In this document: positions 2,921-23,104 of the stretch, one piece after another
Numbering within the stretch: the stretch's first letter is position 1
Layout of the letters: every line of letters starts with the position of its first letter
Source: Fidelibacterota bacterium 408169
Lineage (GTDB): Bacteria; Fidelibacterota; Marinisomatia; Marinisomatales; TCS55
Assembly: GCA_002256485.1 (NCBI GenBank)
Contig: NNSG01000002.1
Location: forward strand, 62,001 to 126,000
Length of the DNA: 64,000 nt
Direction: 5' to 3'
Position numbers and translations under genes: made by a program
The notes under the pieces: generated by a model
The model's database searches: none
The model's input: only the letters and a program-made list of their open reading frames with translations
Told to the model about the DNA's origin: nothing

Positions 2921-5900
2921 TTATCCACTAATGGCAATATTTACATCAAACCCGAAATCACGATCAATTTTCTTACCTGTCGTTTTAGAATCTGATTCCC
3001 TGTATTCATAAATGATTCCACCGCTTATTTGGGAACTGAATGAATATGAAATTCTCAATGATGTTTTCCAACCGGAATTAAATGCAGTCTGTCCAAATTC
3101 TGCACCACCATCCTTACTTCCAAGTGATTCACTTTCATTCATATCAAAATTCAACGTAAAGTTTACGGTATTTTGGATATTCCAATCGTCCATATATGGA
3201 AGTGGAATAGTGAATCCTCCACGGTGGCTGTAATTACTGCTTGCAGTCCATGATTTTTCATTACGTACACTTAATCCATTGGATTCGTCCTGAACTGACC
3301 TGGACACATTGTGACGAACATTCATTGAAATTCCTTTTTTCAAGTTCATGTTCAAACCGATTAAAGGTGAAAAGCTGATGTTTTTTCTCGCTGATCGCTG
3401 GTTTTCAGTGTAATCATCAATAAATTGAGTTAAATCAAATAAGGGCATTCCCGGACCATCAAAATTCTCAAATTGCCACGAGCGGGCTTCCTTTCCATTT
3501 ACGGCATGTTCCATACTGGCTGAACGTGCAATTCTATTAATGAGTGGCCATTTTTCCACTCCGGTCCAACGTAGACTCCAACCAAAAAATGGAATTCCAT
3601 TTTCCAGTTTTTCTCCCCAAAACAAATAATCTCGAGACATGGTCCGTTGTTCAATATTGGATGCCCCTATGGTTGTGGAAATATTCTGTGCATAATTCAT
3701 TGACGTGGATATATTCCGAGTAAAATTCACACCAGAACGTATAGAAAAATCACGCTTGTGATCCCAAGCCCCCTGATCAGATCCAACATCAGCAGCATGA
3801 TTTAAACCATGTTCAGGCAACCATCCGAATTTGTAACCGGTAGGTACGGTTCCCTGCACACCTCGACCAGTTCGGTTGAGATTTTCTGTGTATGAAAAAC
3901 TAATTGGGTTTAATTTTTTTACCATTCCGTGCATTGCAGTTAAAATTGCATTTTCTTTTTGTTCTGGTTTAGCTTCTTTAACCTCTTCATCTTTAGTTCG
4001 CCCCCTACGCCTAGTGCTGCCTGGGCGTTTCTTCGCTTTTGAAGGCGGTTTATAGAACATTTCAAAAAATTGCGATGGTAAAATATTAAAGCTAGATGAA
4101 AATCGTAATTGGGTTCCTATTGTTGCCCCATCGATGGAACTGGCTCGCGGCTTATTCCAGCGGAAAGCAGCGGTATGGTTAAAATTAGGCTTGAGCCATG
4201 TAAAAAATTGTGGATTAAATGACGTTGTCAGATTTTCAGTAATGTTTTCCACGACACCCGGGTCTAAGTCTCGAATAGCCATCCAGGCATATCCACGAAA
4301 ATCTCTAAGGTCACTGCTGACAGATCGCTTGTATTTGGTTTTCAGCTTATCTGTCAAACTGTAGTCCAATGAAAATGAACGGCTTAAACCAAAAGAATAT
4401 GTATCTGTTCGGCTGCCGATTCGCTTTGTTGTTTGTGATAAAGCTTCACTTATATTTAAACTGGTATTGAAGGCAGAAGGAGAATAATACAGATTCATTT
4501 CTCCCAATTTTTCACCCAGCCAGGGGACATCTTTAAGCCACTTAAATGGTGTAATATAATTATCCCTGCTGAATGGATAGGAATAGCTAACCTTTCCTGA
4601 ATATTTTTCATTCAACACCTCTTTATTAAGCGAATTAGAAGATGTGGACTGGGAAGCTGAAAAACTGGGTTTAATTTTATCGAGTGTTGCTTTAATAAAC
4701 CTATTATCTGATTTACTTGATTTTGTTAGGGACGTACTGAAAGAAATTTCTTGTTTCTTGCTCATAATAGAATCTGGGACATTTTCCTGATCTACCAATA
4801 TATCTGAATCGGGGAAGTATTTTGGTCTATTCTCTGATTGTGCAAAAGTTGTGTTTAAGGGAATACTTATACCCCACTTCTTGGGGAGTAATTTGTGCAG
4901 TTGAATATTTGTACTGACTCTGAAATTTTCTGTATTTGTATTACTACCTAACCGTTGTTGTAAAACATGGAAATCAGCATCTTTTCTGCTATAGGAAAAA
5001 GTAGACGATGCAATATCCGCCAAATTGAATTTGGATTGTATGCGCATTGCCACACCACGTTCTTTTTTCACGCCGCTTAGGCGCAATTCATCTAGCCAAA
5101 CTTCTCCTGAAATAGATTCACTCGCCTGATTATTGATTCCCACTATAAAAAATTGAATACTGGAAAGCGATGGTTTTCCCCTAATATGAATCTGTTTACC
5201 AGTTTCAATTCCATTTTCATCCGTAAATGTATAATACCTTTCATTATCTATTACTTCATATATATCTGTTTCATTGAATTTCTTAACACTTGATGAATCC
5301 TGCAGTTTCAGTTTAGTAAGCCAATCCAAATCTATTTCAACAGAATTTCTACCACGTGTTTCATCCCATCCACTGTAAACAGGCTGGACAAATTCGTAAT
5401 AATTATCTCCCTGACCGAACCGCAGAAACAGTTCCACACTGGTTTCTTCTTTACCGATCCATTGATTGGTTGTTTCTCCATAAACATACATTTTTAATTT
5501 ATCATAGGTTAAATAATTCACACCGGATATCTTCATCAAACTTTTCATGGCAGCACCACTGTAATTCATAGGAAGATCCGTGAACTTCATCACCAGAGAT
5601 TGTTCCTTGGAACGAATATCGTTCAGCCTGTCATATTCCCCTTTTACTCCTTCAGGTGGAACATAATTATCATTGTCTTCTGTATTAATAACGGCAATTG
5701 AAAAAATACTGTCAGCATTTTCTTTGGTAAATGTATTGGATGAATCCGGTGCAATGCCCATTTCCTGCCATTCATTTCCAACCAATTCTATTTTTGCAAC
5801 ACTTATGTTAACATTTCCTGTATCAGACACGACCAGTCGCATATGGCGAATATCCGTCCATTCCGTGCTCATGCTGGAATCTATTCGGCTGAAATGGTTT

Positions 5901-8900
5901 AATGGAATTCGGTATAATTTCCAACCGGTATAATTTCCATCGGATTTTTTTGTGCGGCCTGCCAAATAAGTTGTATCCGTTAAGAAAAAGGATTTTGTGA
6001 AATATTTATTTACACTTAATAATTCAAACGAACGATCTAAGCTTTCAGAATCAGGATATTTCCCTGCATCAAGGCCATTACCCTCTGTTCCATTAATTTT
6101 TGAAAAATCTGAACTCCCTTCTTTATAGGTCCAATTGTCATTATTAGGATCATCCAAGTTTCGATCCAGCCCTGTATATACTTGATCTTCCCAGAGTGGA
6201 TTGTCTACAACATCTGCATACAAAGTATCTAAACAGCCTCCCCAGCCATCTTCGTAATCATCCGAACAGCCATCCAAACCAATATCTTCATGATCTTGAA
6301 GTATTCCATCACCGCTCATACCGGCTACTTTTTCATCTTCAGTATCCAATAGTCCATCACCATCACGATCCTCACTAATTCGGCCCAAGTCAATGGTCAA
6401 TTCTCCATTTTCGCCATATAACCAGATTTCAAAAAATTTGGTTTGGGTCTGATCATAATCACCTGAATATAATGGTGATGTTACTCCAGCCCATAAAGAA
6501 TCTTGCTCCATTCCGCTTTGTAAATCCCGGGGTCTGTAATTTAATCTTAATATATCTGTTGTTTCGTTTTGGGCGCGTATAGATGTGGATTGGTTTGGCC
6601 AAATATCTTTCGTTCGAACTTGAACGTAAGGATTGTACCAAACAAGTTTGGCTCGATTATTCAGATTCAGTACTTCTTCATTTTCTGAAGCCACCGGAGC
6701 AGACGATTCTTTCCAGTACCGTCGTTGGATCGGAATAGATGTTGTACGTTTTGATCCTTCAAAATCATCAATAAATGCTACACCATTTGGATCGCCTGTA
6801 GCGGTATTATTGATCGGGTTTGGATTGGGTAAAACCTGAGCAATTTCTCCCTCAATAGAAAATGCAGACACCTTTTCTGTTTCAATGATGGGTAATCGAT
6901 CCAATGCCCGTGTTAAACCATCAAACTCAAGTTGATACCGACCATTCATATCCCAGATAAAATTTCGCATAGGCTCATATCCAACTTCAATTTTTTCATT
7001 CATAATCGTCTGGTTATAATATAATGCTGTAGCACCAACAAATGATTTTTCACCCAAATCCATTTGAGCGCGTGTTCCTACAATTGTTTTCTTATCAAAA
7101 GATACCAATTCATGTTTATCATATAAAATTTTTAGGTTTGCTTCCGGGCCGGATTCAACGTTCATAATCAGCGTTCCGCTGAAATAATCTATTTGATAAT
7201 CTTGACCGCGTTTGAGTTCTACATTATCCAAAAATACCTGTTCACTACCTTCAACTATCATAAATCCAAGATTGATTGTGGAACTTGGGTTTGTGTATTT
7301 AACTTCAATTTCCCAATGCTTATCCCGGGTAATCTCACTGGTAATAGTAGATGTATACATACTTCCTTCTCCCAGTAAGCCTTTTAGAGCTGAATTCGTA
7401 TTACCTCCTTCCAGTGAATCATTGGCAAACGGATGAAATGCAGGAAAAAACAATTCACCTGTTTGCAGGCTAACAATATTGGGGTTGTACATATCAATAA
7501 TTTCATCATTTACCGGTTCATTCGATGTATCTACACTATCCAAACCAAATTGGGTTAAATACTCAACTCCAGTGGGATCATAATTTTTAACAGGTTGTAA
7601 GTATGTATTCCAGATTGTTACACCAAACCCCTCTTCGTTAATCTTTGTGGCGCCCAAGTAATACACATTTTTAAACATGAGATCCCATAAGTCATGGGAT
7701 GGCGTCAGGCTTTTTGGTTTAATCATTTGTAATGTAAGCATGGTATCACTTTCCGAAATACCATGACCAACAGCCAAAACGGTATCGAGTATAGTTTGGC
7801 GATCATTATCTAATTCAACGATATAGTAGTGACAAGCAATAACATTATCCGCAGAACGATTATTTAATCGAATAAATCCCAGATCCCTACTGATGGAATA
7901 ATCCGGCCCTTCCTCCAGTCGCTTGAAATTGACATTATTGTGATCATCATCTGAAGGATTGTTAATATCCACCATAGCAGAACCAGGTTCTGTTGTTGGA
8001 TCTGAAGCACTATCCATACGGTATAATTCAAAATTACGAATCGCGTAGCGCCCAATGCGGTGAAGTCCGCCTACCAGTGGATAAAACGGTGGAATATATT
8101 GGATATTCTTGGATTGACCCAGATACTCCGTTGGCTGATTTTGGGCGCCGTTGCGATAAAATGTGTTAATAAAGAAATATTGATTTTTTATATAATCGTA
8201 ATCATTGATACGCATTGATTGTGCTTCATTTGTTCCTTTGTATTCTTGTTGTTCCTTCCTAGTTTTTTCAATTGAAGCAATCGTCGTTATATCTATGGGA
8301 CCCAGTTTTGAAACTGCTTTCATGCCAAACAGCCCTTTATTCTGTCCAGAAAATGTTACGTATTGCGTTGCCGGCAAGGAAAGTGAAATATTCCCCGCAT
8401 CGATCTTTTGAATAATATCATCCTCTGCTCCTTCATAAGAAATACGAATATTATTTTCCCAGTCAAAATCCCGTTCAGAGTCATTATCCATAAGTACTGT
8501 AATGCGATCGCCGATTTTTCCTTCCACATTCAAATTTTGTTTTTGATCAAATTCAAGATGGGTATTCTGGGATTCGGTCAAACTTGAGCGTATTAATTCC
8601 TGATCCTGGAACACCATTTTACCCGAAATATTTATATTTCCCCTTACCCTCAATGAAGCAGTCCCCAAGGCACCCATATCAACTATGTCAAACGTAATTC
8701 CTTTTCCGCCTCGTCGGGTTTCTTCAGTCATACCTTCACCACCCAACGATACCTTTTCAGAAAATAACAACCGGCGCTTGACATTCATCATGTGCTCAAA
8801 ATACCAATCTACCGGTGCAGTGAACGGTACACGTAATATTTCATCATCGATATATTCTGTAAATGTGATGTGTGTCCAATCACGATCTATATGAATTTCA

Positions 8901-9130
8901 ATATCACGATCTCCAAAATCAGCATTAATCCAACCTAAGGGAACTAATAATGTATCGGACAAAAGACTTAATGGTTTAGGCAAATTAGGAAGAGCAGGTG
9001 CGATATAATCGGATGAAGGAATAAAATTATCTTGGAAATATTGGGCGGACGAATCCGGTTGACCATCCTGGGCAAAGATTGCCGAGAAAGCCATAAAAAG
9101 TACTAATATGACCGCATGCCCTTTATTCAA
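2921..9130 (-). CDS. sprA: SprA/Sov-type giant outer-membrane translocon protein (type IX secretion)
   Basis: 2069 residues, in the size range of Flavobacterium SprA, the very large outer-membrane barrel through which type IX cargo passes. The start is TTG, chosen because AGGAG lies six bases upstream; the signal peptide is residues 1-20, cleaved before Gln21. Family signatures: a motif near residues 200-250 (EGKIGDRITVLMDND, then ISYEGAEDDIIQKIDAGNIS), FSGQNKGLFGMKAVSKLGP, and FIDDFEGSKRTTSIPIQRRY near 785-805. The C-terminal half is alternating, Asn/Ser-rich beta-barrel sequence. Unusual is an Asp-rich stretch at about 913-960 (DRDGDGLLDTEDE) that looks like a thrombospondin-3 or EF-hand-like calcium site. 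It leads an operon with the cyclase lipoprotein, a lipoprotein and a propeller protein. Other T9SS core genes are not in the window. Confidence 0.92.
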   Translation of the reverse strand: MNKGHAVILVLFMAFSAIFAQDGQPDSSAQYFQDNFIPSSDYIAPALPNLPKPLSLLSDTLLVPLGWINADFGDRDIEIHIDRDWTHITFTEYIDDEILRVPFTAPVDWYFEHMMNVKRRLLFSEKVSLGGEGMTEETRRGGKGITFDIVDMGALGTASLRVRGNINISGKMVFQDQELIRSSLTESQNTHLEFDQKQNLNVEGKIGDRITVLMDNDSERDFDWENNIRISYEGAEDDIIQKIDAGNISLSLPATQYVTFSGQNKGLFGMKAVSKLGPIDITTIASIEKTRKEQQEYKGTNEAQSMRINDYDYIKNQYFFINTFYRNGAQNQPTEYLGQSKNIQYIPPFYPLVGGLHRIGRYAIRNFELYRMDSASDPTTEPGSAMVDINNPSDDDHNNVNFKRLEEGPDYSISRDLGFIRLNNRSADNVIACHYYIVELDNDRQTILDTVLAVGHGISESDTMLTLQMIKPKSLTPSHDLWDLMFKNVYYLGATKINEEGFGVTIWNTYLQPVKNYDPTGVEYLTQFGLDSVDTSNEPVNDEIIDMYNPNIVSLQTGELFFPAFHPFANDSLEGGNTNSALKGLLGEGSMYTSTITSEITRDKHWEIEVKYTNPSSTINLGFMIVEGSEQVFLDNVELKRGQDYQIDYFSGTLIMNVESGPEANLKILYDKHELVSFDKKTIVGTRAQMDLGEKSFVGATALYYNQTIMNEKIEVGYEPMRNFIWDMNGRYQLEFDGLTRALDRLPIIETEKVSAFSIEGEIAQVLPNPNPINNTATGDPNGVAFIDDFEGSKRTTSIPIQRRYWKESSAPVASENEEVLNLNNRAKLVWYNPYVQVRTKDIWPNQSTSIRAQNETTDILRLNYRPRDLQSGMEQDSLWAGVTSPLYSGDYDQTQTKFFEIWLYGENGELTIDLGRISEDRDGDGLLDTEDEKVAGMSGDGILQDHEDIGLDGCSDDYEDGWGGCLDTLYADVVDNPLWEDQVYTGLDRNLDDPNNDNWTYKEGSSDFSKINGTEGNGLDAGKYPDSESLDRSFELLSVNKYFTKSFFLTDTTYLAGRTKKSDGNYTGWKLYRIPLNHFSRIDSSMSTEWTDIRHMRLVVSDTGNVNISVAKIELVGNEWQEMGIAPDSSNTFTKENADSIFSIAVINTEDNDNYVPPEGVKGEYDRLNDIRSKEQSLVMKFTDLPMNYSGAAMKSLMKISGVNYLTYDKLKMYVYGETTNQWIGKEETSVELFLRFGQGDNYYEFVQPVYSGWDETRGRNSVEIDLDWLTKLKLQDSSSVKKFNETDIYEVIDNERYYTFTDENGIETGKQIHIRGKPSLSSIQFFIVGINNQASESISGEVWLDELRLSGVKKERGVAMRIQSKFNLADIASSTFSYSRKDADFHVLQQRLGSNTNTENFRVSTNIQLHKLLPKKWGISIPLNTTFAQSENRPKYFPDSDILVDQENVPDSIMSKKQEISFSTSLTKSSKSDNRFIKATLDKIKPSFSASQSTSSNSLNKEVLNEKYSGKVSYSYPFSRDNYITPFKWLKDVPWLGEKLGEMNLYYSPSAFNTSLNISEALSQTTKRIGSRTDTYSFGLSRSFSLDYSLTDKLKTKYKRSVSSDLRDFRGYAWMAIRDLDPGVVENITENLTTSFNPQFFTWLKPNFNHTAAFRWNKPRASSIDGATIGTQLRFSSSFNILPSQFFEMFYKPPSKAKKRPGSTRRRGRTKDEEVKEAKPEQKENAILTAMHGMVKKLNPISFSYTENLNRTGRGVQGTVPTGYKFGWLPEHGLNHAADVGSDQGAWDHKRDFSIRSGVNFTRNISTSMNYAQNISTTIGASNIEQRTMSRDYLFWGEKLENGIPFFGWSLRWTGVEKWPLINRIARSASMEHAVNGKEARSWQFENFDGPGMPLFDLTQFIDDYTENQRSARKNISFSPLIGLNMNLKKGISMNVRHNVSRSVQDESNGLSVRNEKSWTASSNYSHRGGFTIPLPYMDDWNIQNTVNFTLNFDMNESESLGSKDGGAEFGQTAFNSGWKTSLRISYSFSSQISGGIIYEYRESDSKTTGKKIDRDFGFDVNIAISG

Positions 9131-9942: not shown

Positions 9943-10015
<73 letters not shown>

Positions 10016-10604
10016 CTTTTTTATAATCTACATCTAAATACCTTTTATTTAAAAACTTTCCTCTCTTGTTTTTCTCAATTTGAAGACTGTTATACCTTTC
10101 AAACCATAAACACAATGTATCAATTTGGGCCATTTTACTTTAATTAAGTGATACATCTCACTGTACTTTTTTTAGTGTCTTACCATAGACCTTGTTTACA
10201 GTTAGGGAACATAAAGAAGCCCTGGAATATGGGAATGGAGACGTGGCGTAGAATAAAAAGAATAATAAAGAAAAGCCTGTCCGATTAATCGGACAGGCTT
10301 TCTAAACTTGAGCCTTCTTTCAAACAAAAAAGTAAGGATTTCAAGATGGTTAAAGTTATGAAGAATAAATATCAATTGAACTTCCACGTTTTGAGGATGA
10401 AAAAATCAACGATTAGGATGTGAATGCTTGAGTGTTTATGAAGAAGGAATTGGATGGCTACAACTCTATTGAAAGTGATTTTGATGCACAAAATAGATGT
10501 AAATAACAAATCAAGAGAACTGAAATTATTTCTTGAATCATTTTAACTAATTGATTTAATTCAGTAAGAACATTATTGTTGAAATAATTACATTAACAAT
10601 CAAT
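10016..10604 (+). other. 589-bp gap without a convincing gene
   Basis: No ORF here has recognisable similarity. A 61-codon minus-strand ORF (10202-10387) looks like chance, being mostly the complement of the palindrome region. On the plus strand there are only very short frames, such as a 25-codon ORF from 10345 preceded by AAGGA. The gap holds one notable structure, the perfect 30-bp palindrome listed separately. The last 60 bases presumably hold the promoter and ribosome-binding site of the next lipoprotein gene, but I see no strong Shine-Dalgarno sequence. Confidence 0.5.
10272..10301. terminator. Perfect 30-bp palindrome, possible bidirectional terminator
   Basis: The 30 bases equal their own reverse complement; the half-site core is GCCTGTCCGATTA. 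As RNA it forms a stem of about 13 bp with a tiny loop, with A's before and T's after on both strands, as in a bidirectional intrinsic terminator. The nearest gene end is tRNA-Phe more than 250 bp upstream, so its user is unclear. Confidence 0.55.
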
Positions 10605-11966
10605 ATGACCAGAAAAATTTACATACTGTACTTTCTCATATTATTCCTGGGTTGTCAAGATAACCTATTGGACCCATCGGTGACAAAGTCTGTCAGCAAC
10701 GATAATTTCAAATTATCAATGTCGCTATCAGATGATATAGTTCATGAAGCAGGCAATATTAAAGTAGACGTTTCATTAGAGCGAACTGTTGATGCTCCCT
10801 TTTTCCTGCCAAGTAAAATGCTGGGAGAATGGTATCTTCGGGAAATAAATGACCAAATCCTTACAGAAGATTCATTGCAGATTGTTTATGAATTTTTAGC
10901 TGACAGCACATACGGTATCAGTAAAACGTTTTCTTTCAACAGCAAATCTTTGGGTTCACAAGTTTTGGGGAAATGGAATGTATACAGCGACACAGATTAC
11001 CAATTAATCCACGGCTATGATACAACAACCACGGCAGAAGAAACTTTAAATGAATGGCCTGTTGGTGATACAACATATACTGTTACCACCCATGATATTA
11101 TTCATATTGACTCTATCCGAACATTAGAATACACATTTTCAAATGATTATGGCGTAACTCTTACAAACAAGATTATTTATAATTATATGACTGTTACAGA
11201 ATTAGATACGACGATAACATGGAATAATGGTGATAGTGGTGCCTGGGGAACCGGAAGAGATACAGTAAATACCACTGATAGTACAAGCACAGACAGAGAT
11301 GGTTTGTGGGATTTTACACAGGATAATATCACAACTTTAACTGTTCATTTCTATGATGTTCAGGGTGGAGAGCATAGCTCATTCAACACAACGTTTGATA
11401 TAGATATTGCTACAATTCCAATAGGCAGTTTTATGTATTGGGCGGGGGATAATTACCGCAGCGTCGTTCTGCAAAAAACTGGTGCATCCACAACATTTGA
11501 TACACCGGATGATTCCACAGCTTCTTTCCAAGGAGGTTGGACATTTACTCAAACAGCTAATGAATTAACTGTAACGACTAATTTGAATAATACAGAAGAA
11601 TCCGGATTAATCAGTTTTGATACACCTGGCTCTGTTGTTCCTGTGGGTGGTTATATGTACTGGATTACGAATGATAATCAATATACATTTGAAAAGAAAG
11701 CAGATCCCGGTACTTCCGATCCAAACTTTGAATTGTTGGATATGAGTTTAATCGTTTCAGCTTTAGGCGGTGATATTTATGTTTTGAATTCAACTTATGG
11801 ATCTGAATACAAATCATTTGATGTTGAAATTGGCAGCGGTACAGGAGATGAATATAAAGCAACTTGCTTTTTTGAACCGAGTTCCAGCGCTGGCTCTAAC
11901 GGTTATATTTCAACACAGTTCGACGATATTACTTTAACAATCTCTGTTTATATCATACAGGACTGA
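10605..11966 (+). CDS. Predicted lipoprotein with repeated beta-rich domains, paired with a secretin
   Basis: 453 residues. The N-terminus MTRKIYILYFLILFLGCQDN contains a lipobox LFLGC (Cys17). The mature protein is rich in Thr, Asp and aromatic residues and contains repeated lipocalin-like units. One unit runs from GLWDFTQDNITTLTVHF to IPIGSFMYWAGDN; the next runs from GGWTFTQTANELTVTTN to VPVGGYMYWITND. An earlier, more diverged unit starts at LGEWYLREIND. I do not recognise the family. Its stop overlaps the secretin start (TGATG), so the two are translationally coupled. A lipoprotein encoded this tightly with a secretin could be a pilotin or a structural partner, but it is far larger than known pilotins, so that is speculation. 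Confidence 0.75.
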   Translation: MTRKIYILYFLILFLGCQDNLLDPSVTKSVSNDNFKLSMSLSDDIVHEAGNIKVDVSLERTVDAPFFLPSKMLGEWYLREINDQILTEDSLQIVYEFLADSTYGISKTFSFNSKSLGSQVLGKWNVYSDTDYQLIHGYDTTTTAEETLNEWPVGDTTYTVTTHDIIHIDSIRTLEYTFSNDYGVTLTNKIIYNYMTVTELDTTITWNNGDSGAWGTGRDTVNTTDSTSTDRDGLWDFTQDNITTLTVHFYDVQGGEHSSFNTTFDIDIATIPIGSFMYWAGDNYRSVVLQKTGASTTFDTPDDSTASFQGGWTFTQTANELTVTTNLNNTEESGLISFDTPGSVVPVGGYMYWITNDNQYTFEKKADPGTSDPNFELLDMSLIVSALGGDIYVLNSTYGSEYKSFDVEIGSGTGDEYKATCFFEPSSSAGSNGYISTQFDDITLTISVYIIQD

Positions 11967-14065
11967 TGTTCAGAAAATTTCTTTATACTTCGTTTATAAT
12001 CCTTTTTCTATCTGCAATTCATGGGCAGACACTACAACGGACAAATACAGCCACAAAGGGGATTTCACTTCGTGATCTTGAATATGAAGTAATTAAATTA
12101 AGTTATATCCGCACAGATCGTGCAGTGGGTATTCTAAAGTCTATGGGATATGTCGTTATCGAATTTGAATCTGGCAAAGATGATCCAGCCGGAGAACGCC
12201 AGTATAATCCTAAACAATCAAAAAAGATAAATATTAATAATATTAAACCGGATGAATTTCCCATCATTATCAAACTTCCGGAAACTGAATCAGTGACTTT
12301 GGTGGCAGAAGATAAATCCAAGAAATCCAGTAAAAAGAAAGCAGAACTCGGGGTAGATCTTGGTGGAATTCCTTTAGAAGACATTACAGACGGCGACCCA
12401 ATGCAACGGCTTCTTGTCGGGTACAATACAGGTAAATTTGATGAAGTAGCACAATTACTTAATTTGATTCATAATAAAATTGATATTCCGGCTCCTCAAA
12501 TATTAATAGAAGCATTGGTCATTGAATTGGACTCGGATAAATTGGATGAGTTAGGAATTGATTATAGTGGTACAGGAACAGGTTTTTCAGCAGCATTTCC
12601 TCCACCTGATCCTGAATCTGGAGAGATTAATCCATTCACAGTTATATTGGATCGAACACTACTTGGAAATGCAAATACATTCAGAACAAATGTCCAAGCA
12701 CTAATCAGTACAAAGGCAGCCGAAATATTATCAAAACCTTCCGTTCTGGTTTTGGATGGCCGCCAAGCACGCATCCAAGTAGGACAGCAAATCCCAATTG
12801 TTAAAACAACAGATACACAAATTTCCCAAACGAAATCTGTTGATTATATTCCCGTTGGAATTGTATTGAATTTGCGTCCAAGAATCAATGAAGATAACAC
12901 ACGTATTACCATTCAAGTGGAAACAATTATCAGTGAAACAGAAGAACGTATCGGTGCTTCATCCGGTGGAGGTGTTTTGGAAGCACCTGTAATTAATAAT
13001 CGTCGAGTTCAGTCCTTTGTACGTGTAGCCAATAATACCCCATTTATAATCGGTGGATTGATTTCCAATAAGAAATCCAATAGTGAGGGTGGAATTCCTC
13101 TTTTAAAAGACCTTCCCTTTTTAGGAAAAATATTTTCTATTTCAACTGAAAGAACAATTAAGAAAGAAGTTATCGTTGTCATAACTCCCCATATAATCCA
13201 GGAATCAGAAAATAATTTCAGTCGAGTTATTCCGCAAGATTCTGATCTCTTTAACGCATTTGGTAACCGTTCTTTTCCAAATAGTTATCGGGTACAAAAT
13301 ACAGATGTTTTTGATTTGAGTTTTATTTACAGTAGTCCAATATATAAAAAAATCAGATCTGCAGTGAGTAATGAAGCTAAAAAAGATAAAACTATGTATA
13401 TGGAAGAACCATATAAAAGTGTCTTAGAGGGACGTGTTTTTGGCGAAGATATCCTTGTGCGAAGGATGATTTATGAAATCATCGAAAAAATGGATTATTA
13501 TAAATATATTGATCCTGAAAAAGTAATGTTTTTCAAGGATAATCCAGACGATCCATCTGGTTTTAAAGTTGAACCATTAGCAGAATATATTCGTGGAGTT
13601 TTTGATTTGAAAGGTGATAAATATTTACGCCTTACTTACTCTGTACGCGGACTAGCATCGCTGGATAAACCATTCGTTCGTCCCACTGCGCTTATAGCCT
13701 ATGATGATAAAAGCGGGCAATATAGTTTTAAACAATTGAATCGTATTAAAAATAAACGTGATACAAATTCAAGTGATAATGATTATACCATATTGATTGG
13801 TGAAGAAAAAAACGAACGCCGATTATATGAAATTTTAGTTTTGAAAAAAGTTTTAGAATTAAACCCTGATTTGTTACTTGAGCTGGATTATTTTAAACCT
13901 GGAATTGAGATACTTTTTCCCTCCCCTGAAGTATTGATTAAAGATTATCATATAGTTGATAGAGATGGAGCAAAATATTTCTATGAAATAAATGATTATT
14001 ATGGTGCTTTTGAAGACGTATTTAACCGTCAAACTTCCGCTTTTGTCGATTTAATTATAAAATAA
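11966..14065 (+). CDS. Secretin (GspD/PilQ-like) with long C-terminal extension
   Basis: 699 residues. Signal peptide 1-20, cleaved before Gln21. The N-terminal region (about 25-175) has short ring-building-like segments, including GKFDEVAQLLNLIHNKIDIP just before the core. The secretin core (about 175-410) shows PQILIEALVIELD, LSKPSVLVLDGRQARIQVGQ, VGIVLNLRPRI, the gate-type motif GIPLLKDLPFLGKIFS, and KEVIVVITPHII, the normal end of the barrel. Secretins form large outer-membrane pores for type II/III secretion, type IV pili or phage exit. Unusually, about 285 residues follow the core, with no motif I recognise. No other T2SS, T3SS or pilus gene is nearby; the neighbours are the coupled lipoprotein and an acidic exported protein. 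Confidence 0.9.
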   Translation: MFRKFLYTSFIILFLSAIHGQTLQRTNTATKGISLRDLEYEVIKLSYIRTDRAVGILKSMGYVVIEFESGKDDPAGERQYNPKQSKKININNIKPDEFPIIIKLPETESVTLVAEDKSKKSSKKKAELGVDLGGIPLEDITDGDPMQRLLVGYNTGKFDEVAQLLNLIHNKIDIPAPQILIEALVIELDSDKLDELGIDYSGTGTGFSAAFPPPDPESGEINPFTVILDRTLLGNANTFRTNVQALISTKAAEILSKPSVLVLDGRQARIQVGQQIPIVKTTDTQISQTKSVDYIPVGIVLNLRPRINEDNTRITIQVETIISETEERIGASSGGGVLEAPVINNRRVQSFVRVANNTPFIIGGLISNKKSNSEGGIPLLKDLPFLGKIFSISTERTIKKEVIVVITPHIIQESENNFSRVIPQDSDLFNAFGNRSFPNSYRVQNTDVFDLSFIYSSPIYKKIRSAVSNEAKKDKTMYMEEPYKSVLEGRVFGEDILVRRMIYEIIEKMDYYKYIDPEKVMFFKDNPDDPSGFKVEPLAEYIRGVFDLKGDKYLRLTYSVRGLASLDKPFVRPTALIAYDDKSGQYSFKQLNRIKNKRDTNSSDNDYTILIGEEKNERRLYEILVLKKVLELNPDLLLELDYFKPGIEILFPSPEVLIKDYHIVDRDGAKYFYEINDYYGAFEDVFNRQTSAFVDLIIK

Positions 14066-14068
14066 ACG

Positions 14069-14088
14069 TAAATCACTTATGTGATTTA
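14069..14088. promoter_or_regulatory. Small inverted repeat between secretin and acidic-protein genes
   Basis: TAAATCAC-TTAT-GTGATTTA is an 8-bp perfect stem with a four-base loop, immediately after the secretin stop codon. It has no T-tract, so it is a poor terminator. It may be an operator or mRNA-end structure upstream of the acidic-protein gene, whose strong Shine-Dalgarno (AAGGAG, 14156-14161) follows. Confidence 0.35.
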
Positions 14089-14166
14089 ACGCATATAATT
14101 GTTTTGATTTATACTATATATTGTGTTTATAATAATACACCAACCACAAGAAAGTAAGGAGAGATC

Positions 14167-15081
14167 ATGAATAGAATGATTAAAAACGTCCTCATACCAA
14201 TTTTCATTATCATCACTTTTGGCTTATACGGCCAGGATGATTGCCCAGATGACCTGAATATGCTACATGCACCTGGTGAAGGTGAACCTGGATGTATCGA
14301 TTACACCGATTGCAACGACAATGGTGCTTTTGATGTGGGTGAACCATGTTACGATGCACCACCTGAAGGTGAAAATGAAGGCGAACATGAAGGTGAAGAA
14401 GAAGGAGATCCAGTGTCAGAAGCATTTTTCAACGCATTAGATGATGGAGCTGACCCAACAGCTGCTTTTGACGCAGCTGCTGGAGTGGTCTATCAACTGG
14501 AAGTAGTCGAAGGTGGTATGCCAGAAGATGAATATCAAGAAGGACTGGATGCTGTTTCACAAGCTTTTAATGAGGCTCTCGAAGATGGAGTTGATCCTGG
14601 AGAAGCTTGGGGTGCAGCAATGGAAGCCGCAGAACAGTTAGATGATGTGAATGACTCAGAATATGGTGAACATACTGTACATAATTGTATTGCTTTAGCA
14701 GAAGATCGTGGAACATATTGGATTGGCGAAGAAGAATTTGTTGTCTGGGATGACCCAAATGTTGATTGCGATTATCTACTAGATGAAATTGGGTATCAAC
14801 CACCACCTGAAGGTGAAGAAGATTCCCAGCATGATTGGTACTGTGCTATTTGTGATGAACATTTTGCTACAGAAGCTGAAATGGATCAACATGCTGCAGA
14901 AATGGGACATACAATGGGTGGATCAGCTGGAGGTTGCGATCCAGAAGCAGACTATCCTGAAAATCCACCTGGTGATGGTGAAGGATGTATGGCTTATGAA
15001 GATTGCAACGGCAATGGAGTTTTTGATATTGGTGAACCATGTCATGATGGTCCACCTCCAGGTGATGGAGAAGGTCATTAA
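14167..15081 (+). CDS. Acidic exported protein with EF-hand-like loops and a C2H2-type zinc finger
   Basis: 304 residues, strongly acidic. Signal peptide 1-22 (ending LYG), cleaved before Gln23. Near-identical modules sit near each end: D48-CNDNGAFDVGE and D279-CNGNGVFDIGE, each preceded by GC..Y.DCN and followed by PC.D.PP. Both fit a 12-residue DxNxNGxxDxGE calcium loop, with flanking Cys that could pair. In between are Glu/Gly-rich linkers, two helical repeats (DDGADPTAAFDAAAG and EDGVDPGEAWGAAMEAAEQ), and YCAICDEHFATEAEMDQHAA from residue 225 ending at His248. That segment matches the classical C2H2 finger C-x2-C-x3-F-x5-M-x2-H-x5-H (C226, C229, H242, H248). It has its own strong ribosome-binding site and terminator. 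It could be cargo or a partner of the upstream secretin; function unknown. Confidence 0.8.
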   Translation: MNRMIKNVLIPIFIIITFGLYGQDDCPDDLNMLHAPGEGEPGCIDYTDCNDNGAFDVGEPCYDAPPEGENEGEHEGEEEGDPVSEAFFNALDDGADPTAAFDAAAGVVYQLEVVEGGMPEDEYQEGLDAVSQAFNEALEDGVDPGEAWGAAMEAAEQLDDVNDSEYGEHTVHNCIALAEDRGTYWIGEEEFVVWDDPNVDCDYLLDEIGYQPPPEGEEDSQHDWYCAICDEHFATEAEMDQHAAEMGHTMGGSAGGCDPEADYPENPPGDGEGCMAYEDCNGNGVFDIGEPCHDGPPPGDGEGH

Positions 15082-15102
15082 TCATTTATCTATTTCTTTT
15101 TC

Positions 15103-15135
15103 AAAGAACCCCGCTCAAGCGGGGTTCTTTGTTTT
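15103..15135 (+). terminator. Intrinsic terminator after the acidic-protein gene
   Basis: A perfect 13-bp stem (AAAGAACCCCGCT with its complement, 15103-15130) is followed by a T-rich run. It lies 22 bp after the stop codon and ends the secretin/acidic-protein region. Confidence 0.9.
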
Positions 15136-17767: not shown

Positions 17768-20560
17768 ATGATAAAACATACACTCATACTAGTTGCGTTT
17801 ACTTTAATGCTAAATAGTCAGACGATGCTAACTCATGATTCACCGGGGCTTGGCAATTATGATTTACCTTTTAATTCAAATGGTACATATAATAATGAGA
17901 TCCAATCTCCATCAGAATTTCTAGGGTTTGAATTGGGCTCAAGACCCGTTCATCATTGGGAAACAAAAACATACTTCGAATACCTAGATGCCACAGTTGA
18001 TAATGTAACTTTATACAGCTATGGAAAAACTTACGAGGGTCGTGAACTGATTTATCTTATCATTACCAGTAAGGAAAATTATCAAAAAATAGATAATTTG
18101 AGGAAAAATATTGCTAAACTGGCAGATCCTCGTACAATGAACCGAAAAGAAGATGTTGAAAATATTATTGCAAAAACACCCGCTGTTGCCTGGATGGCTT
18201 ACGCAATTCATGGGGATGAAATTTCAAGCGCTGACGCTGCCCTGCAAGTTGCTTACCAACTTGCTGCCGGCACAGATGAAAAAACACAAGCGATCCGAGA
18301 TAATGTTATTGTGGGTATTGATCCCATTGAAAATCCCGATGGTAGGGAACGAATTTTATCACAGTATCAACAATGGCGAGGTGTTGTTCCAAATTCTGAC
18401 TTACAAAGTTTGAATCACAGGGGGATGTGGCCTTGGGGCAGAACAAACCACTACCTATTTGATTTAAACAGAGATTGGTTTGCTACAGTCCATCCAGAAA
18501 CACGAGGTAAAGTCAAAACCATTTTAGAATGGAAACCACAATTCCTGGTAGACTCTCATGAAATGGGAGCTTATGATACCTATTTATTTAATCCACCCCG
18601 TGAACCTTTTAACCCTTATTACCATAAAGTTATTCATAAATGGTGGGGTAGAATCGCAAATGACCATGCAAATGCATTTGATCAATATGGTTGGAGTTAT
18701 TATACACGAGATTGGAATGAAGAAATTTATCCGGGATACGGCAGTTCTTGGGGAATTTATGCTGGAGTTGTAGGTATTTTGTACGAACAATCCCGGACAT
18801 CTGGACAATTGGTAAAACGCCCCGATGGGTCGGTAACAACATTCAGGGAAGCTATCCATCATCAATTTATAAGCTCCATTTCAAACCTCTCTACCGTTGC
18901 TGCACATCGAGAAGAATTATTATACGATTATTATGAAATTCGTAAAAATGCTGTAAATAGTAATCCAAATGAAGCTTATATCTTTCCCTTATCCAATAAT
19001 CTGGATCGTCTCGATGATTTTGTAGAGACGCTGCAAAGACAATCAATCGAAGTTCATTTTACTCCGAACCATTTAAAACTAGTTTCTGCACAATCTCATG
19101 AAAATAAAAAAATAAAAAATATTAATATCGATGGAGGGGCATTGGTGATAAAGGTAAATCAACCTTTGCAAGCACTTATCCAGAATATCCTGCAATTTGA
19201 TATTCGTCTTGATACTAAATCGATGGAAAAAGAACGTCAGAAAGTTTTAAAAAATGATGGCTCCACGCTCTATGATGTAACAGCTTGGTCTCTTCCGCTA
19301 GCATTTGGACTAGAAGGATATTATACAACATCCCTGCCTCGCGTAGATCTAAATCCATACACAAAATTATCAGGGAAGGGTCATTTAACAAATGTTGATG
19401 CAGATTACGGATTTGTTTTAGACGGATCTGAAGATGGCATTTATATTGCGATATCGCGGTTAATGGAGAAGGGTATCCATATCTATGCCATTGAGGAAGA
19501 AGTGAAAATTGAGGGGAATCGTTACCCCCTTGGAAGTATATTGATACGTAAACAGTCTAACCCTGATTTAGAGGATGATTTTCTTCAAGAAATTGCTAAA
19601 GAAAGTGGAATTAATGTTGTTGGCATTGGGACAGCATTAGCTGAAAATGGACCGGATTTAGGCGGTAGTAAAGTTAATTTGCTAGAAGAATCCCGTATTG
19701 CCTTGATCGGCGGACCGCCCACAAGTCCTTATAGTTTCGGTTCAATGTGGTATTTACTTGATTCGAGGTTGAAAGCCAGAGCTTCATTATTGAATTTCAT
19801 GGATGTGCGCCGGACGGATTTGAGAAAGTATAATGTATTGGTTTTACCATCAACTTGGGGTGGATCTCTAGAACAAGTACTGGGAGACAAAGGATTAAAG
19901 AAACTGAAAGATTGGGTTAGTGATGGAGGTACACTCATTGCCTTAGGCGGAACGGCTAATTCTATCGCTGATTCTTCATCTGGATTAAGCAGCGTCAGGA
20001 AAAAAAGAAATATACTTAAAGAATTAGAGAGTTATAATTACAACTTGATACAATATCAGTCAGCAGCAGAAATCAGAGTGGATAGTTTGGAATTGTGGGA
20101 AGGAAAAACTACGACTGATGACGAAACTGAAGCTGTTCAGGAAAAACCCGGTTTTAAGGAATTAAAAGATCGTGATGAACTGGGACGAAAATTGAGTCCC
20201 CAAGGAGCAATTCTTCGTGTCAATCTGGATCAGGAACACTGGCTTAATTTTGGTTGTGGTGGCATGGTTCCTGTTCTGTTTAATTCTTCTACAGTATTAA
20301 TGACAAAAAATCCCTCTGCAACTCCTGCTCGATTCGCTTCAAAAGAAGATTTACGTCTCGGCGGCTTATTATGGCCCGAAGCAAAAGAGCGAATCGCAAA
20401 CGGTTCATGGGCTACACGGGAACGATTGGGTAATGGTCAAGTAATTCTTTTTGCCACACAACCAAATTTTAGAGGTTATTTCAGAGGATCTGAACGCTTA
20501 CTTCTTAATGCCATATTTTATGGCCCAGGATTAGGTGCAAACGCTTCAGTCGACTGGTAA
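17768..20560 (+). CDS. Exported M14-family zinc carboxypeptidase with C-terminal GATase1-like domain
   Basis: 930 residues. Signal peptide about 1-17, cleaved before Gln18. The M14 domain (about 60-370) has the HxxE zinc motif in AIHGDEISS (H148, E151), IDPIENPDGRER, DLNRDWF, the third ligand H264 in LVDSHEMGA, and a likely catalytic Glu340 in GILYEQSRTSG. These enzymes remove C-terminal residues from peptides. Downstream is a beta-rich region. Then a domain (about 640-760) with RIALIGGPPTSPYSFGSMWYL, VLVLPSTWGG and LKDWVSDGGTLIALGG resembles glutamine-amidotransferase-like domains found fused to M14 peptidases. Likely periplasmic or secreted, for peptide nutrition. Its 3' end overlaps the convergent HAD gene by 15 bp. 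Confidence 0.9.
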   Translation: MIKHTLILVAFTLMLNSQTMLTHDSPGLGNYDLPFNSNGTYNNEIQSPSEFLGFELGSRPVHHWETKTYFEYLDATVDNVTLYSYGKTYEGRELIYLIITSKENYQKIDNLRKNIAKLADPRTMNRKEDVENIIAKTPAVAWMAYAIHGDEISSADAALQVAYQLAAGTDEKTQAIRDNVIVGIDPIENPDGRERILSQYQQWRGVVPNSDLQSLNHRGMWPWGRTNHYLFDLNRDWFATVHPETRGKVKTILEWKPQFLVDSHEMGAYDTYLFNPPREPFNPYYHKVIHKWWGRIANDHANAFDQYGWSYYTRDWNEEIYPGYGSSWGIYAGVVGILYEQSRTSGQLVKRPDGSVTTFREAIHHQFISSISNLSTVAAHREELLYDYYEIRKNAVNSNPNEAYIFPLSNNLDRLDDFVETLQRQSIEVHFTPNHLKLVSAQSHENKKIKNINIDGGALVIKVNQPLQALIQNILQFDIRLDTKSMEKERQKVLKNDGSTLYDVTAWSLPLAFGLEGYYTTSLPRVDLNPYTKLSGKGHLTNVDADYGFVLDGSEDGIYIAISRLMEKGIHIYAIEEEVKIEGNRYPLGSILIRKQSNPDLEDDFLQEIAKESGINVVGIGTALAENGPDLGGSKVNLLEESRIALIGGPPTSPYSFGSMWYLLDSRLKARASLLNFMDVRRTDLRKYNVLVLPSTWGGSLEQVLGDKGLKKLKDWVSDGGTLIALGGTANSIADSSSGLSSVRKKRNILKELESYNYNLIQYQSAAEIRVDSLELWEGKTTTDDETEAVQEKPGFKELKDRDELGRKLSPQGAILRVNLDQEHWLNFGCGGMVPVLFNSSTVLMTKNPSATPARFASKEDLRLGGLLWPEAKERIANGSWATRERLGNGQVILFATQPNFRGYFRGSERLLLNAIFYGPGLGANASVDW

Positions 20561-21205
20561 TAAATTCTGTAAATACATATTTTTAAACTCATATAAATCA
20601 CTAAAAATAGTTGCATCCGTTTCTAGTAAACGTGACTTACTTGTATGACCTTGTGCAATTAAAATACAATTTACACCCATATTATTGGCAACATCAAAAT
20701 CATGGAGCGTATCACCAATCATCAATACTTCGTGAGGATCATAATGCATTTCGTTGATCCATGTATTACCAATGTCCGTTTTCCCGCTGGCATAATGATT
20801 GTTTATTCCTAGTACCTTAATAAAATATTTTTCTAAACCATGAAAGGCAACCCAATCCTGAACATAATCATGTTTTCCAGCAGATAGGATTGATTGCGTT
20901 AACCCTCTAGATTGTACAAATTCAAGTAGATCTACTACACCATCCTGAAGATTAGGTTCATGAAATTTTGAATTATAATTTTCAATAAACTCAGTACCCG
21001 AAACAGTGAAAGGTTCTTTTTCAAAGTCAAATCCTAGTTTTATATAATAATCTTCCACGGGGAATGTAAAAATATCTAAATACTTTTCTTCGGACATTTG
21101 AGGTAAGTTTCTTTTATGAAGAGCTTTATTCATAGCTTCTACGCAAAGCCAGCGATCATTAAGCAACGTACCGTTCCAATCCCAAATGATGTGTTTTATT
21201 TTCAT
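20546..21205 (-). CDS. HAD-superfamily hydrolase, phosphoglycolate-phosphatase-like
   Basis: 219 residues, cytoplasmic. The N-terminal motif IIWDWNGTLLND contains the nucleophile Asp9, but the usual second Asp of DxDGT, the acid/base residue, is Asn11. This DWNGT variant recurs in a subset of HAD proteins. Motif II is SILSAGKH, motif III an ASGKTD region, and motif IV is MIGDTLHDFDVA. The cap insertion after motif I is of the helical C1 type. Substrate unknown. Convergent with the M14 gene. Confidence 0.85.
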   Translation of the reverse strand: MKIKHIIWDWNGTLLNDRWLCVEAMNKALHKRNLPQMSEEKYLDIFTFPVEDYYIKLGFDFEKEPFTVSGTEFIENYNSKFHEPNLQDGVVDLLEFVQSRGLTQSILSAGKHDYVQDWVAFHGLEKYFIKVLGINNHYASGKTDIGNTWINEMHYDPHEVLMIGDTLHDFDVANNMGVNCILIAQGHTSKSRLLETDATIFSDLYEFKNMYLQNLLPVD

Positions 21206-21260
21206 ATACTCCCGTAAATATCAGGTAGTTTATTCTAAAAAACGATAACTTTTACAGGCT

Positions 21261-21893
21261 ATGGAATTAAATAAATTATCTCAAAAGCTCCAATTCCTAC
21301 TAAAAAGTGATCTTCCCGGTCAAAGTAGTCAATGGAGAATGCGCGTTAAAACAGATAAGATCTTTAATTTCAACACGACTGAAGAAAATGCCATTCAATC
21401 TGCCATATTAATTCTTCTTTATGAAAAATGTGGTAAAATATATTTTTTATTAACTGAACGAACTCATACAGTAGAACATCATCGGGGTCAAATTTCTCTG
21501 CCTGGCGGAGTAAGAGAAATTAATGAAAAACTTTCATCTACGGCGACTCGTGAAACTAATGAAGAAATTGGTATCAATGCAGATGATATAGATGTTATGG
21601 GTGCACTTTCTCCTTTATTTGTTCCGGTTACAGGTTTTATCATCCATCCGTTTGTTGGCGTAATAAATAACAATTTTGAACTACATCCCGAACCGGGGGA
21701 AGTTGCGAATGTTTTTGAAGTTGATGTTGATGAACTTATAAATGATGACAATGAACTTGAGGAAAAAAGAAATCTTCGCGGTTATGACATGGATATACCT
21801 TATTTTTTATTATCAAAACATAAAGTTTGGGGCGCTACTGCAATGATATTATCAGAATTTAAAACAGTATTAAAAGAGGTATTTGATGCATAG
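21261..21893 (+). CDS. Nudix hydrolase, CoA-pyrophosphatase-like (NudL group)
   Basis: 210 residues. The Nudix box is intact from Gly83 to Ile105 (G-x5-E89-x7-R97-E98-x2-E101-E102-x-G104). Just upstream, LLTERTHTVEHHRGQISLPGG matches the extra signature of the CoA-pyrophosphatase subfamily (YeaB/NudL), which splits CoA into phosphopantetheine and 3',5'-ADP. It overlaps the downstream ROK-kinase gene and is the first gene of a three-gene operon. Confidence 0.88.
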   Translation: MELNKLSQKLQFLLKSDLPGQSSQWRMRVKTDKIFNFNTTEENAIQSAILILLYEKCGKIYFLLTERTHTVEHHRGQISLPGGVREINEKLSSTATRETNEEIGINADDIDVMGALSPLFVPVTGFIIHPFVGVINNNFELHPEPGEVANVFEVDVDELINDDNELEEKRNLRGYDMDIPYFLLSKHKVWGATAMILSEFKTVLKEVFDA

Positions 21894-22764
21894 GATAGGT
21901 ATTGATCTTGGCGGAACAAAAATTGAAGGAATTCTACTGGATCAAAACAACGAAACAATTTCTCGAAAAAGGGTACCAACAAATCGGGAAGATGGTTATA
22001 AAGCTATTATCCATCGTATATCAAAATTAGGAAATGAGTTGCTGGAAAAATCTTCTGGAGTCGAACGTATAGGTATTTGCACTCCCGGCTCCGTAGATCC
22101 ATCTGAAGGAGTCATGAAAAACAGTAATACTTTATGTCTTATCGGGGAACCGTTGCAGAAAGATTTAGAAAATAGTTTTGACCTTCCTGTCTACATGGAA
22201 AATGATGCAAACTGTTTTGCATTAGCTGAGACAGTAATGGGGGCAGCAAATGGGTATGGTGTTGTATTTGGTGTTATTATGGGTACCGGTGTTGGAGGCG
22301 GAATTATAATTGATGGTAAAATACACCGGGGGCCAAATCATATTGCAGGTGAATGGGGTCATCATGTTCTTTATCCTGATGGGCGAAATTGTTACTGTGG
22401 AAATAAAGGCTGCACAGAGTCATATATCAGCGGCACTGCTCTTGAAAAAGAATGGAAAGAATTAACCGGGCAAAAAGAAATTGTTACAAACATCATCGAA
22501 AAAGAACTTTATAAAGAGCATCCTGAGTGGAAAAATAAATTTTTCCTTAATTTTGGACGAGCATTAAGCCATATAATTGACATATTAGATCCTGACTGCA
22601 TTGTGCTTGGAGGAGGCCTGTCAAAAATTGATTTACTTTATTCCGAAGGGAAAGAATCTGTTTATAATGAAACGTTCAGTACTCATGTAATCACTCCAAT
22701 TTTGAAGAATAAACTTGGAGATTCCGCTGGAGTATTTGGAGCCGCTTTGTTAGGAGAAACGTAA
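21886..22764 (+). CDS. ROK-family sugar kinase
   Basis: 292 residues. IGIDLGGTKIEGILLD is the N-terminal phosphate loop; ENDANCFALAE and GTGVGGGIIIDG are the central ROK motifs. GEWGHHVL followed by CYCGNKGCTESYISG carries the zinc-binding His and three Cys typical of ROK kinases. The family phosphorylates glucose, fructose, N-acetylglucosamine or N-acetylmannosamine; the sequence does not settle which. I start at the ATG at 21886, six bases after GAGG, rather than at the preceding TTG. The start lies inside the Nudix gene and the stop overlaps the next gene by 1 bp. Confidence 0.9.
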   Translation: MHRIGIDLGGTKIEGILLDQNNETISRKRVPTNREDGYKAIIHRISKLGNELLEKSSGVERIGICTPGSVDPSEGVMKNSNTLCLIGEPLQKDLENSFDLPVYMENDANCFALAETVMGAANGYGVVFGVIMGTGVGGGIIIDGKIHRGPNHIAGEWGHHVLYPDGRNCYCGNKGCTESYISGTALEKEWKELTGQKEIVTNIIEKELYKEHPEWKNKFFLNFGRALSHIIDILDPDCIVLGGGLSKIDLLYSEGKESVYNETFSTHVITPILKNKLGDSAGVFGAALLGET

Positions 22765-23024
22765 TGAAATTCGGGCGTTGGCTGAATTCTTTAACATTTA
22801 TTGATCATGTCATAATTTTGTTAATATTTTCAATATCTTGTTGGCTGGCTCACATATCAATGAAAGGATTTAGAAAACTTGTTGAAAAAACAAACCAAAG
22901 TCCCTATGCCGCAGAATTTCGCTCCAGCCCATTTATTATATTTGTGATTGCAGTCCCTTATACAGTAATTATATATAGGATTTTTGGAATATATCTAACT
23001 GAACTTCTAAAATCTACTTTTTAG
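22764..23024 (+). CDS. Small membrane protein, function unknown
   Basis: 86 residues with two predicted membrane helices (about 14-31 and 52-76) separated by a charged loop. The start overlaps the ROK-kinase stop (TAATG), so it is coupled. No family recognised. The operon position says nothing firm about function. Confidence 0.65.
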   Translation: MKFGRWLNSLTFIDHVIILLIFSISCWLAHISMKGFRKLVEKTNQSPYAAEFRSSPFIIFVIAVPYTVIIYRIFGIYLTELLKSTF

Positions 23025-23030
23025 AAGTTC
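23001..23030 (+). terminator. Hairpin overlapping the end of the small membrane-protein gene
   Basis: GAACTTCTAAAA pairs with TTTTAGAAGTTC across a short loop. The hairpin overlaps the last codons and stop. It lacks a good T-tract, so termination strength is uncertain. Confidence 0.5.
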
Positions 23031-23104
23031 CTTAAGCATCCATTCCTGTAAGTAGATTTACAGGTTTTCGGAAGGTAAAAATAAAAATAATCGTAAACTT
23101 GTGT

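What the first reader, a model, noticed from the sequence alone, without database searches (positions are those of the whole stretch)
10605..15081. Orphan secretin set: lipoprotein, secretin, acidic metal-binding exported protein
A secretin without T2SS, T3SS or pilus genes nearby is translationally coupled to a large repeat lipoprotein and followed by a highly acidic exported protein with two calcium-type loops and a zinc finger. This could be a minimal outer-membrane export or assembly system with its own substrate. I know no described system with this composition.
Basis: partly seen in the sequence, partly recalled or inferred. Interest (0 to 1): 0.6.

Follow-up and report, generated by a model that had tools for sequence, protein, structure and literature searches.

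The report
Motor-free secretin pore with acidic partner
In a lineage of uncultured ocean bacteria, three neighbouring genes encode an outer-membrane pore that lacks the usual docking part and motor of its family, a lipid-anchored helper, and a very acidic metal-binding exported protein found almost nowhere else, so they probably form a small export or surface-assembly device that has not been described.

Summary
Window 10605-15081 (Candidatus Neomarinimicrobiota, SAR406) holds a lipoprotein overlapping a secretin by one base, then an extremely acidic exported protein (mature part 28% Asp+Glu, no Lys). The trio is a conserved unit. An orthologous secretin is in 26 of 40 genomes of the family and in a second family of the order. 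A coupled lipoprotein sits upstream in both. The acidic gene follows at all 28 type-A loci that can be judged, although flanking genes differ. In 245 genomes of the phylum, two signature modules of the acidic protein occur only beside this secretin, with one explainable exception. The secretin is a true orphan: the T2SS and T4P of this genome have their own secretins, and 14 related genomes keep this secretin with no detectable T2SS/T4P ATPase or platform gene. It lacks the N0 domain that docks other secretins to inner-membrane machines, and has a unique 265-residue C-terminal domain. A lysine-rich N3 loop (4-6 K/R against 0-2) and a CRP/FNR-like site occur only where the acidic gene is present, though this is one evolutionary event. 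Best reading: a motor-free secretin, piloted by the lipoprotein, that passes or displays its own acidic client. Transport itself is inferred, not shown.

The parts
10605..11966 (+). Lipoprotein, 453 aa: signal sequence with invariant Cys17, then an all-beta core split into residues about 26-60 and 380-453, interrupted by lineage-specific inserted repeats
   Evidence: ORF; alignment of 28 homologues with one common insertion site; AF2 pLDDT about 80-93 over the core halves; weak Ig-like Foldseek hits only
11966..14065 (+). Secretin, 699 aa: signal peptide, one N3-type domain, barrel domain, unique C-terminal domain
   Evidence: PF00263 E=2e-39; nearest NCBIfam TIGR02517 GspD 161 bits, below cut-off 351; Foldseek PDB secretins E down to 8e-15
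12077..12535 (+). Single N3-type periplasmic domain (residues 38-190) with a long insert; no room for an N0 domain between signal peptide and N3
   Evidence: no STN or Secretin_N in 20 members; profile alignment to own PilQ starts only in the last N domain; beta-alpha-beta ... beta-alpha-beta; N-termini
12281..12358 (+). Lys-rich loop in N3 (ETESVTLVAEDKSKKSSKKKAELGVD): 4-6 K/R in all 30 secretins of the acidic-gene clade, 0-2 in the 12 without it
   Evidence: one evolutionary event
13253..14062 (+). C-terminal domain of the secretin (residues about 430-699), no Pfam or PDB match, conserved in Neomarinimicrobiota
14072..14085 (.). Dyad ATCAC-N4-GTGAT after the secretin stop; in relatives a CRP/FNR-like GTGA-N6-TCAC stands at this place
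   Evidence: the exact form is found only in post-secretin regions of the acidic-gene clade; about 0.0015 expected per region
14104..14133 (+). Sigma70-like promoter (TTGATT-18-TATAAT) for the acidic gene
   Evidence: consensus scan; a prediction, count in the region not clearly above shuffles
14167..15081 (+). Acidic exported metal-binding protein, 304 aa, no Lys in the mature part; single copy in the genome
14242..14349 (+). Module A copy 1 (Cys plus DxNxxGxxDxGE calcium-type loop)
   Evidence: HMM, E=7e-16
14407..14637 (+). Module B (alpha-helical AFF...AFDAA...GAA module), only at this locus in the phylum
   Evidence: E=4e-29
14665..14772 (+). Module E (NCxA...Y...W), only at this locus in the phylum
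   Evidence: E=1e-13
14836..14904 (+). C2H2-like zinc finger CAICDEHFATEAEMDQHAAEMGH
   Evidence: PF12171 E=0.001 here, below cut-off; up to 6e-10 and above cut-off in orthologues
14935..15042 (+). Module A copy 2
   Evidence: HMM, E=2e-18
15102..15131 (+). Intrinsic terminator (13-bp stem, T-run) closing the unit

Best explanation
A stand-alone outer-membrane secretin system. [quoted passage not shown] (2) The secretin forms a gated pore whose periplasmic side is one N3 ring plus a large outer C-terminal domain. Without N0 it lacks the usual dock for a T2SS, T4P or phage inner-membrane machine, and many relatives encode no such machine (shown from sequence and genomes). (3) The acidic Ca/Zn-binding protein crosses the inner membrane by Sec (signal peptide). 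It is recognised electrostatically at the N3 vestibule by the Lys-rich loop, and in several genera by an Arg/Pro-rich N-terminal tail, and then passes through the pore or is held in it, ending on the cell surface or outside (inferred). (4) The acidic gene has its own promoter, probably controlled by a CRP/FNR-type regulator, so client supply is regulated apart from the pore (site shown in relatives, regulation inferred). With no ATPase, net movement would have to come from mass action and trapping outside, for example metal-stabilised folding or binding to the surface; this step is speculative.
For: Trio conserved: full-length secretin orthologues in 26/40 family genomes; the lipoprotein directly upstream in all 25 fetched family loci, with 1- or 4-base overlap in most; the acidic gene at all 28 judgeable type-A loci in two families, across at least three gene contexts. 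Exclusive linkage: in 245 phylum genomes, 23 module-E hits in 21 genomes, all at this locus, one gene being split between two contigs; 24 module-B hits in 16 genomes, one exception at the syntenic place on a contig that ends there. Independence: three secretins in this genome and two complete T4P/T2SS sets with their own; 14 genomes (four at least 90% complete) with this as sole secretin and neither PF00437 nor PF00482. No N0. Lys-rich N3 loop and GTGA-N6-TCAC only where the acidic gene is present.
Against: No biochemical data; the AF2 models are weak (pLDDT 60 and 66) and no complex could be predicted. Charge loop, regulatory site and acidic gene all map to one branch, so their association is one event, not repeated co-evolution. 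In the window's own genus the CRP/FNR-like site is rearranged. Three genomes of genus g2 and the distant f16/f17 genomes keep the secretin without the acidic gene, so the pore has a function without it. No energy source is known. The lipoprotein matches no known pilotin family. MAGs are incomplete: G024 lacks PF00437 but has a PF00482 fragment.
Confidence: 0.5

Rival explanations
1. The acidic protein is not a passing substrate but a resident: a polyanionic Ca/Zn-binding plug or gate that sits in the positively charged vestibule of the secretin, closes the wide pore and opens with metal or charge conditions. The pore then serves other traffic, such as uptake or release of polymers.
For: Exclusive linkage and the charge complementarity fit a bound partner as well as a cargo. 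Secretins without the acidic gene persist in g2 and f16/f17, so the pore has another use. Length, repeats and module order vary greatly, as if exact fold did not matter.
Against: Its own, probably regulated promoter and very fast, modular evolution (74% identity against 92% for the secretin and 86% for the lipoprotein between the closest pair) fit an exposed or released protein better than a pore component with fixed stoichiometry.
Confidence: 0.2
2. The secretin is an alternative outer-membrane pore used in trans by the genome's T2SS or T4P.
For: Both machines are encoded elsewhere in this genome.
Against: Each has its own secretin; secretins outnumber assembly ATPases by one in G000, G003, G004, G010, G023 and G031; 14 genomes keep this secretin without any such motor; no N0 docking domain.
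Confidence: 0.06
3. The acidic protein is a secreted or periplasmic metal scavenger or buffer (Zn/Ca-binding), and the secretin is its exit or a co-regulated but functionally separate gene.
For: EF-hands, C2H2-like fingers, repeated CxxC-H-x-C modules and His-Asp repeats in orthologues.
Against: Modules occur nowhere else in the phylum, unlike a general metal buffer. I did not test for a metal-responsive (Zur-type) operator; the conserved site is CRP/FNR-like.
Confidence: 0.14
4. The lipoprotein, with its lineage-specific inserts, is the surface-displayed cargo, and the acidic protein is an accessory.
For: Acidic residues follow the lipid Cys (CED, CSD, CQE), as in surface-export signals of related Bacteroidota lipoproteins (own knowledge); inserts of lineage-specific beta repeats and, in f10, FG-GAP propeller repeats; weak structural hits to adhesin Ig domains.
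Against: A core is conserved and encoded upstream of the secretin even where the acidic gene is missing in g2, which fits an obligatory assembly partner.
Confidence: 0.1

Closest known systems
Type II secretion secretin GspD (TIGR02517)
   Same: Same barrel family, best NCBIfam score (161 bits, residues 163-416)
   Different: Far below the 351-bit cut-off; no N0, N1 or N2; no GspC-O genes nearby; extra C-terminal domain of about 265 residues that is not the short S-domain
Type IV pilus secretin PilQ (TIGR02515)
   Same: Barrel and last N domain
   Different: 115.7 bits against a 284 cut-off; no STN/N0 and no PilMNOP next to it, whereas the genome's own PilQ has both
Filamentous phage secretin pIV (phrog_1012)
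   Same: Few N domains and an orphan in the bacterial sense; PHROG match E=7e-42 over residues 156-413
   Different: pIV has N0 plus N3 and works with inner-membrane pI/pXI (PMC8563730); here N0 is absent and the flanking genes are not phage genes; no viral contig carries the C-terminal domain
Pilotin lipoproteins (PulS/OutS, AspS/EpsS, TadD, PilF/PilW types)
   Same: Lipid-anchored and encoded with a secretin
   Different: All-beta, Ig-like core with insertions; no Pfam or PDB relation to a known pilotin
TadD-RcpA, the Tad secretin-pilotin pair (PMC10499894)
   Same: A dedicated lipoprotein and secretin pair
   Different: TadD is a different fold (TPR, own knowledge), and Tad systems have a PF00437-family ATPase, absent from many carriers here

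Membership tests
Secretin superfamily | Secretin barrel domain PF00263 above gathering score | tested here: met
   135 bits against 27.5; all 20 members of alignment A1
[quoted passage not shown]
   N3 present; no STN/N0 in 20 members; signal peptide plus linker ends at residue 37, or 22 in g2, leaving no room
Type II secretion system | GspD equivalog score | tested here: not met
   161.5 against 351.35; note that the genome's own T2SS-like secretin also misses its cut-off
Type II secretion system | ATPase, platform protein and pseudopilins with the secretin | tested here: not met
   None beside it; elsewhere in this genome they go with other secretins, and they are undetected in 14 relatives
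Type IV pilus / Tad | PF00437 ATPase and pilin genes linked to the secretin | tested here: not met
   neighbourhoods
Type III secretion | SctC equivalog score | tested here: not met
   107.9 against 238 bits; T3SS export-apparatus genes were not searched for separately
Filamentous phage export (pIV) | Linked pI/Zot-type ATPase and phage genes | tested here: inconclusive
   Neighbours are SprA, an ITPase-like gene and SIS/CBS housekeeping genes; no dedicated Zot search; no viral contig hit
Pilotin | Lipoprotein signal and genetic linkage to the secretin | tested here: met
   Invariant Cys in 28 homologues; coupled reading frames
Pilotin | Homology or fold match to a known pilotin class | tested here: not met
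Pilotin | Binds the secretin C-terminus and is needed for outer-membrane targeting | not testable with these tools
   Needs experiment
T9SS cargo (acidic protein) | Por-type C-terminal sorting domain | tested here: not met
   No NCBIfam sorting-domain match for the 304-aa protein
EF-hand / C2H2-type metal-binding protein (acidic family) | EF-hand and C2H2 models above gathering score | tested here: met
   Met in orthologues such as L048, L050 and L054; in the window copy the loops and the finger are below cut-off

The most novel reading that the evidence does not exclude
A secretin-based export pathway without an inner-membrane motor: an N0-less secretin with its own pilot lipoprotein captures a Lys-free, metal-binding polyanionic client by charge at the N3 ring and exports it without ATPase, pseudopilus or phage machinery.
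Probability: 0.35. Interest if true: 0.8.

Novelty: new variant of a known kind. Interest (0 to 1): 0.62.

Why it matters
The characterised secretins work as the outer door of a larger envelope machine. A secretin that has lost its docking domain, persists in genomes with no such machine and is locked to its own lipoprotein and acidic metal-binding protein would show that the secretin channel can work alone. It gives a minimal case for asking what opens a secretin gate and what moves a client through it, and would add an unrecognised surface system to an abundant uncultured marine phylum.

Tried and rejected
T2SS/T4P accessory secretin: rejected on secretin/ATPase counts and motorless genomes. 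T9SS cargo: no sorting domain. Phage origin: no viral-contig relative; the PHROG pIV hit is the shared barrel. Secretin-acidic gene fusion in L066: an artefact of N's at the stop codon. The lipoprotein as a homologue of the Big_1 lipoprotein beside this genome's PilQ: only the signal-peptide region aligned. C-terminal-domain function from fold: the whole-model Foldseek search returned only secretins with significance. Literature searches found no description of such a set, but only open-licence papers are held. G024 and G104 were not counted as motorless: G024 has a platform fragment and G104 a T2SS-type secretin fragment.

Full report
Observation. The lipoprotein and secretin frames share one base (TGATG); the acidic gene follows 101 bp later and ends before a strong intrinsic terminator at 15102-15131. 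The window lies in a 2.47-Mb assembly. Close relatives in GTDB are named Candidatus Neomarinimicrobiota, or Marinimicrobia/SAR406.

Is the secretin really an orphan? The genome has three secretins. One lies in a T4P cluster with PilT, PilM, PilN, PilO, PilB, PilC and a prepilin-peptidase-like gene (contig C1). One lies in a T2SS-like cluster with an E-type ATPase, an F-type platform protein and pseudopilin-like genes (C6). The window secretin has no motor left over for it. Among 40 carriers, secretins outnumber assembly ATPases by one in G000, G003, G004, G010, G023 and G031. Fourteen genomes, four of them at least 90% complete, have this as their only secretin and show neither PF00437 nor PF00482. 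One genome that lacked PF00437 (G024) carries a PF00482 fragment, so single absences can be assembly gaps; fourteen together are hard to explain that way.

Conservation of the set. Full-length orthologues, C-terminal extension included, are in 26 of 40 family genomes at 44-92% identity. A profile of the C-terminal domain finds 41 of 245 genomes of the phylum; a pattern scan of all GTDB species found only this phylum, though that scan is not sensitive to distant members. A lipoprotein gene stands directly upstream in all 25 fetched family loci and in the second family of the order (f10), with a 1- or 4-base overlap in most. The acidic gene stands directly downstream in 21 of 21 family loci where the contig extends far enough and the clade is the window's, and at 7 of 7 f10 loci. 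It is absent in genus g2, from the second paralogue in G103 (L121), and from the f16/f17 homologues. Flanking genes differ between genera: SprA/ITPase and a SIS/CBS gene in the window's genus, PhoH-type and SDR genes in others.

The acidic protein. Its mature part has 28% Asp+Glu, no Lys and almost no Arg. Orthologues are modular and diverge fast: 74% identity against 92% for the secretin in the closest pair. HMMs built here for three modules (A, calcium-type loop with Cys; B, helical; E, NCxA...Y...W) cover the downstream genes, each gene having at least one. Searched over 245 genomes, E gives 23 hits in 21 genomes and B gives 24 in 16. All lie at this locus, with two cases that need comment. 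The single E hit on another contig is the second half of a gene split between contigs. The single B exception is a 1099-aa lipoprotein-like gene at the same syntenic place on a contig that ends there. Orthologues contain EF-hands and C2H2-type fingers above Pfam cut-offs. In this genome it is single copy.

Secretin anatomy. Pfam sees only PF00263; none of 20 members has STN (N0) or Secretin_N. Only one N domain, of N3 type with an insert, precedes the barrel, and only about 16 residues (window) or almost none (g2) separate it from the signal peptide. The pIV paper states that secretins share N0 and N3 and that N0 meets the inner-membrane partners (PMC8563730). The 265-residue C-terminal domain has no Pfam or PDB match. 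The AF2 model is good only locally (pLDDT about 80 over residues 460-630).

Lipoprotein. Twenty-eight homologues share a lipid Cys and an all-beta core; lineage-specific repeats, and FG-GAP repeats in f10, are inserted at one place. The AF2 core is confident. PDB matches are weak Ig-like folds, none of them a pilotin.

Charge and regulation. While reading the first alignment I noticed that a Lys-rich N3 loop was missing in g2, which lacks the acidic gene. I then tested the f10, L121 and f16/f17 sequences. All 30 secretins of the acidic-gene clade have 4-6 K/R in this loop and all 12 without it have 0-2. The tree needs only one change for the acidic gene (quick method, weak support at that branch), so this is one correlated event. 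The space after the secretin stop holds GTGA-N6-TCAC, a CRP/FNR-type dyad, in many loci of the acidic-gene clade and in none of those without the gene (about 0.0015 expected per region); most other loci with the gene hold a near-match. In the window's genus it is a related but rearranged dyad. Two CRP-type regulators are encoded in the genome.

Mechanism. Shown: linkage, independence from motors, loss of N0, charge and site correlations. Inferred: lipoprotein as pilot, acidic protein as client recognised at N3, passage or display through the pore, separate regulation of the client. Unknown: the energy source. The main rival is a resident plug. Novelty: the channel family is known; a stand-alone N0-less version with dedicated partners was not found described in the papers searched.

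Noticed in passing
window 2921-9130 (-): 2069-aa T9SS translocon SprA/Sov (TIGR04189, 756 bits) beside the trio in the window's genus only.
   Followed up: partly
L012 10507-12462: A 651-aa lipoprotein-like protein with a Big_1 domain is encoded directly after PilQ in this genome's T4P cluster: an unrelated but parallel secretin/Ig-lipoprotein pairing.
   Followed up: partly
G103 (L120 and L121): One genome carries both paralogues: trio type with acidic gene, and g2 type without it followed by a 727-aa exported protein ending in a T9SS-like sorting sequence.
   Followed up: partly
L126, L127, L129-L131: In the f16 family the distant secretin is preceded by a small Lys-rich exported protein of about 100-119 aa instead of a lipoprotein: opposite charge to the acidic partner, while the N3 domain there is strongly acidic.
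   Followed up: no
L157 5882-9181: 1099-aa FecR-like lipoprotein carrying module B of the acidic family at its C-terminus, at the syntenic place in G029.
   Followed up: partly
window 20546-33264: Genes that flank the trio in other genera (SDR, PhoH-type, transporter-like, ROK kinase, NUDIX) lie 6-18 kb downstream in the window, so the trio seems to have moved as a unit within one region.
   Followed up: partly
upstream of the lipoprotein gene in L049, L052, L053, L055, L058, L059, L061, L065: Conserved GTTTACTTTA...GTTTACAxTT element, possibly the promoter of the lipoprotein-secretin pair.
   Followed up: no
window 9943-10016 (+): tRNA-Phe(GAA) upstream of the unit, with an inverted repeat and terminator-like site at 10271-10302.
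   Followed up: no
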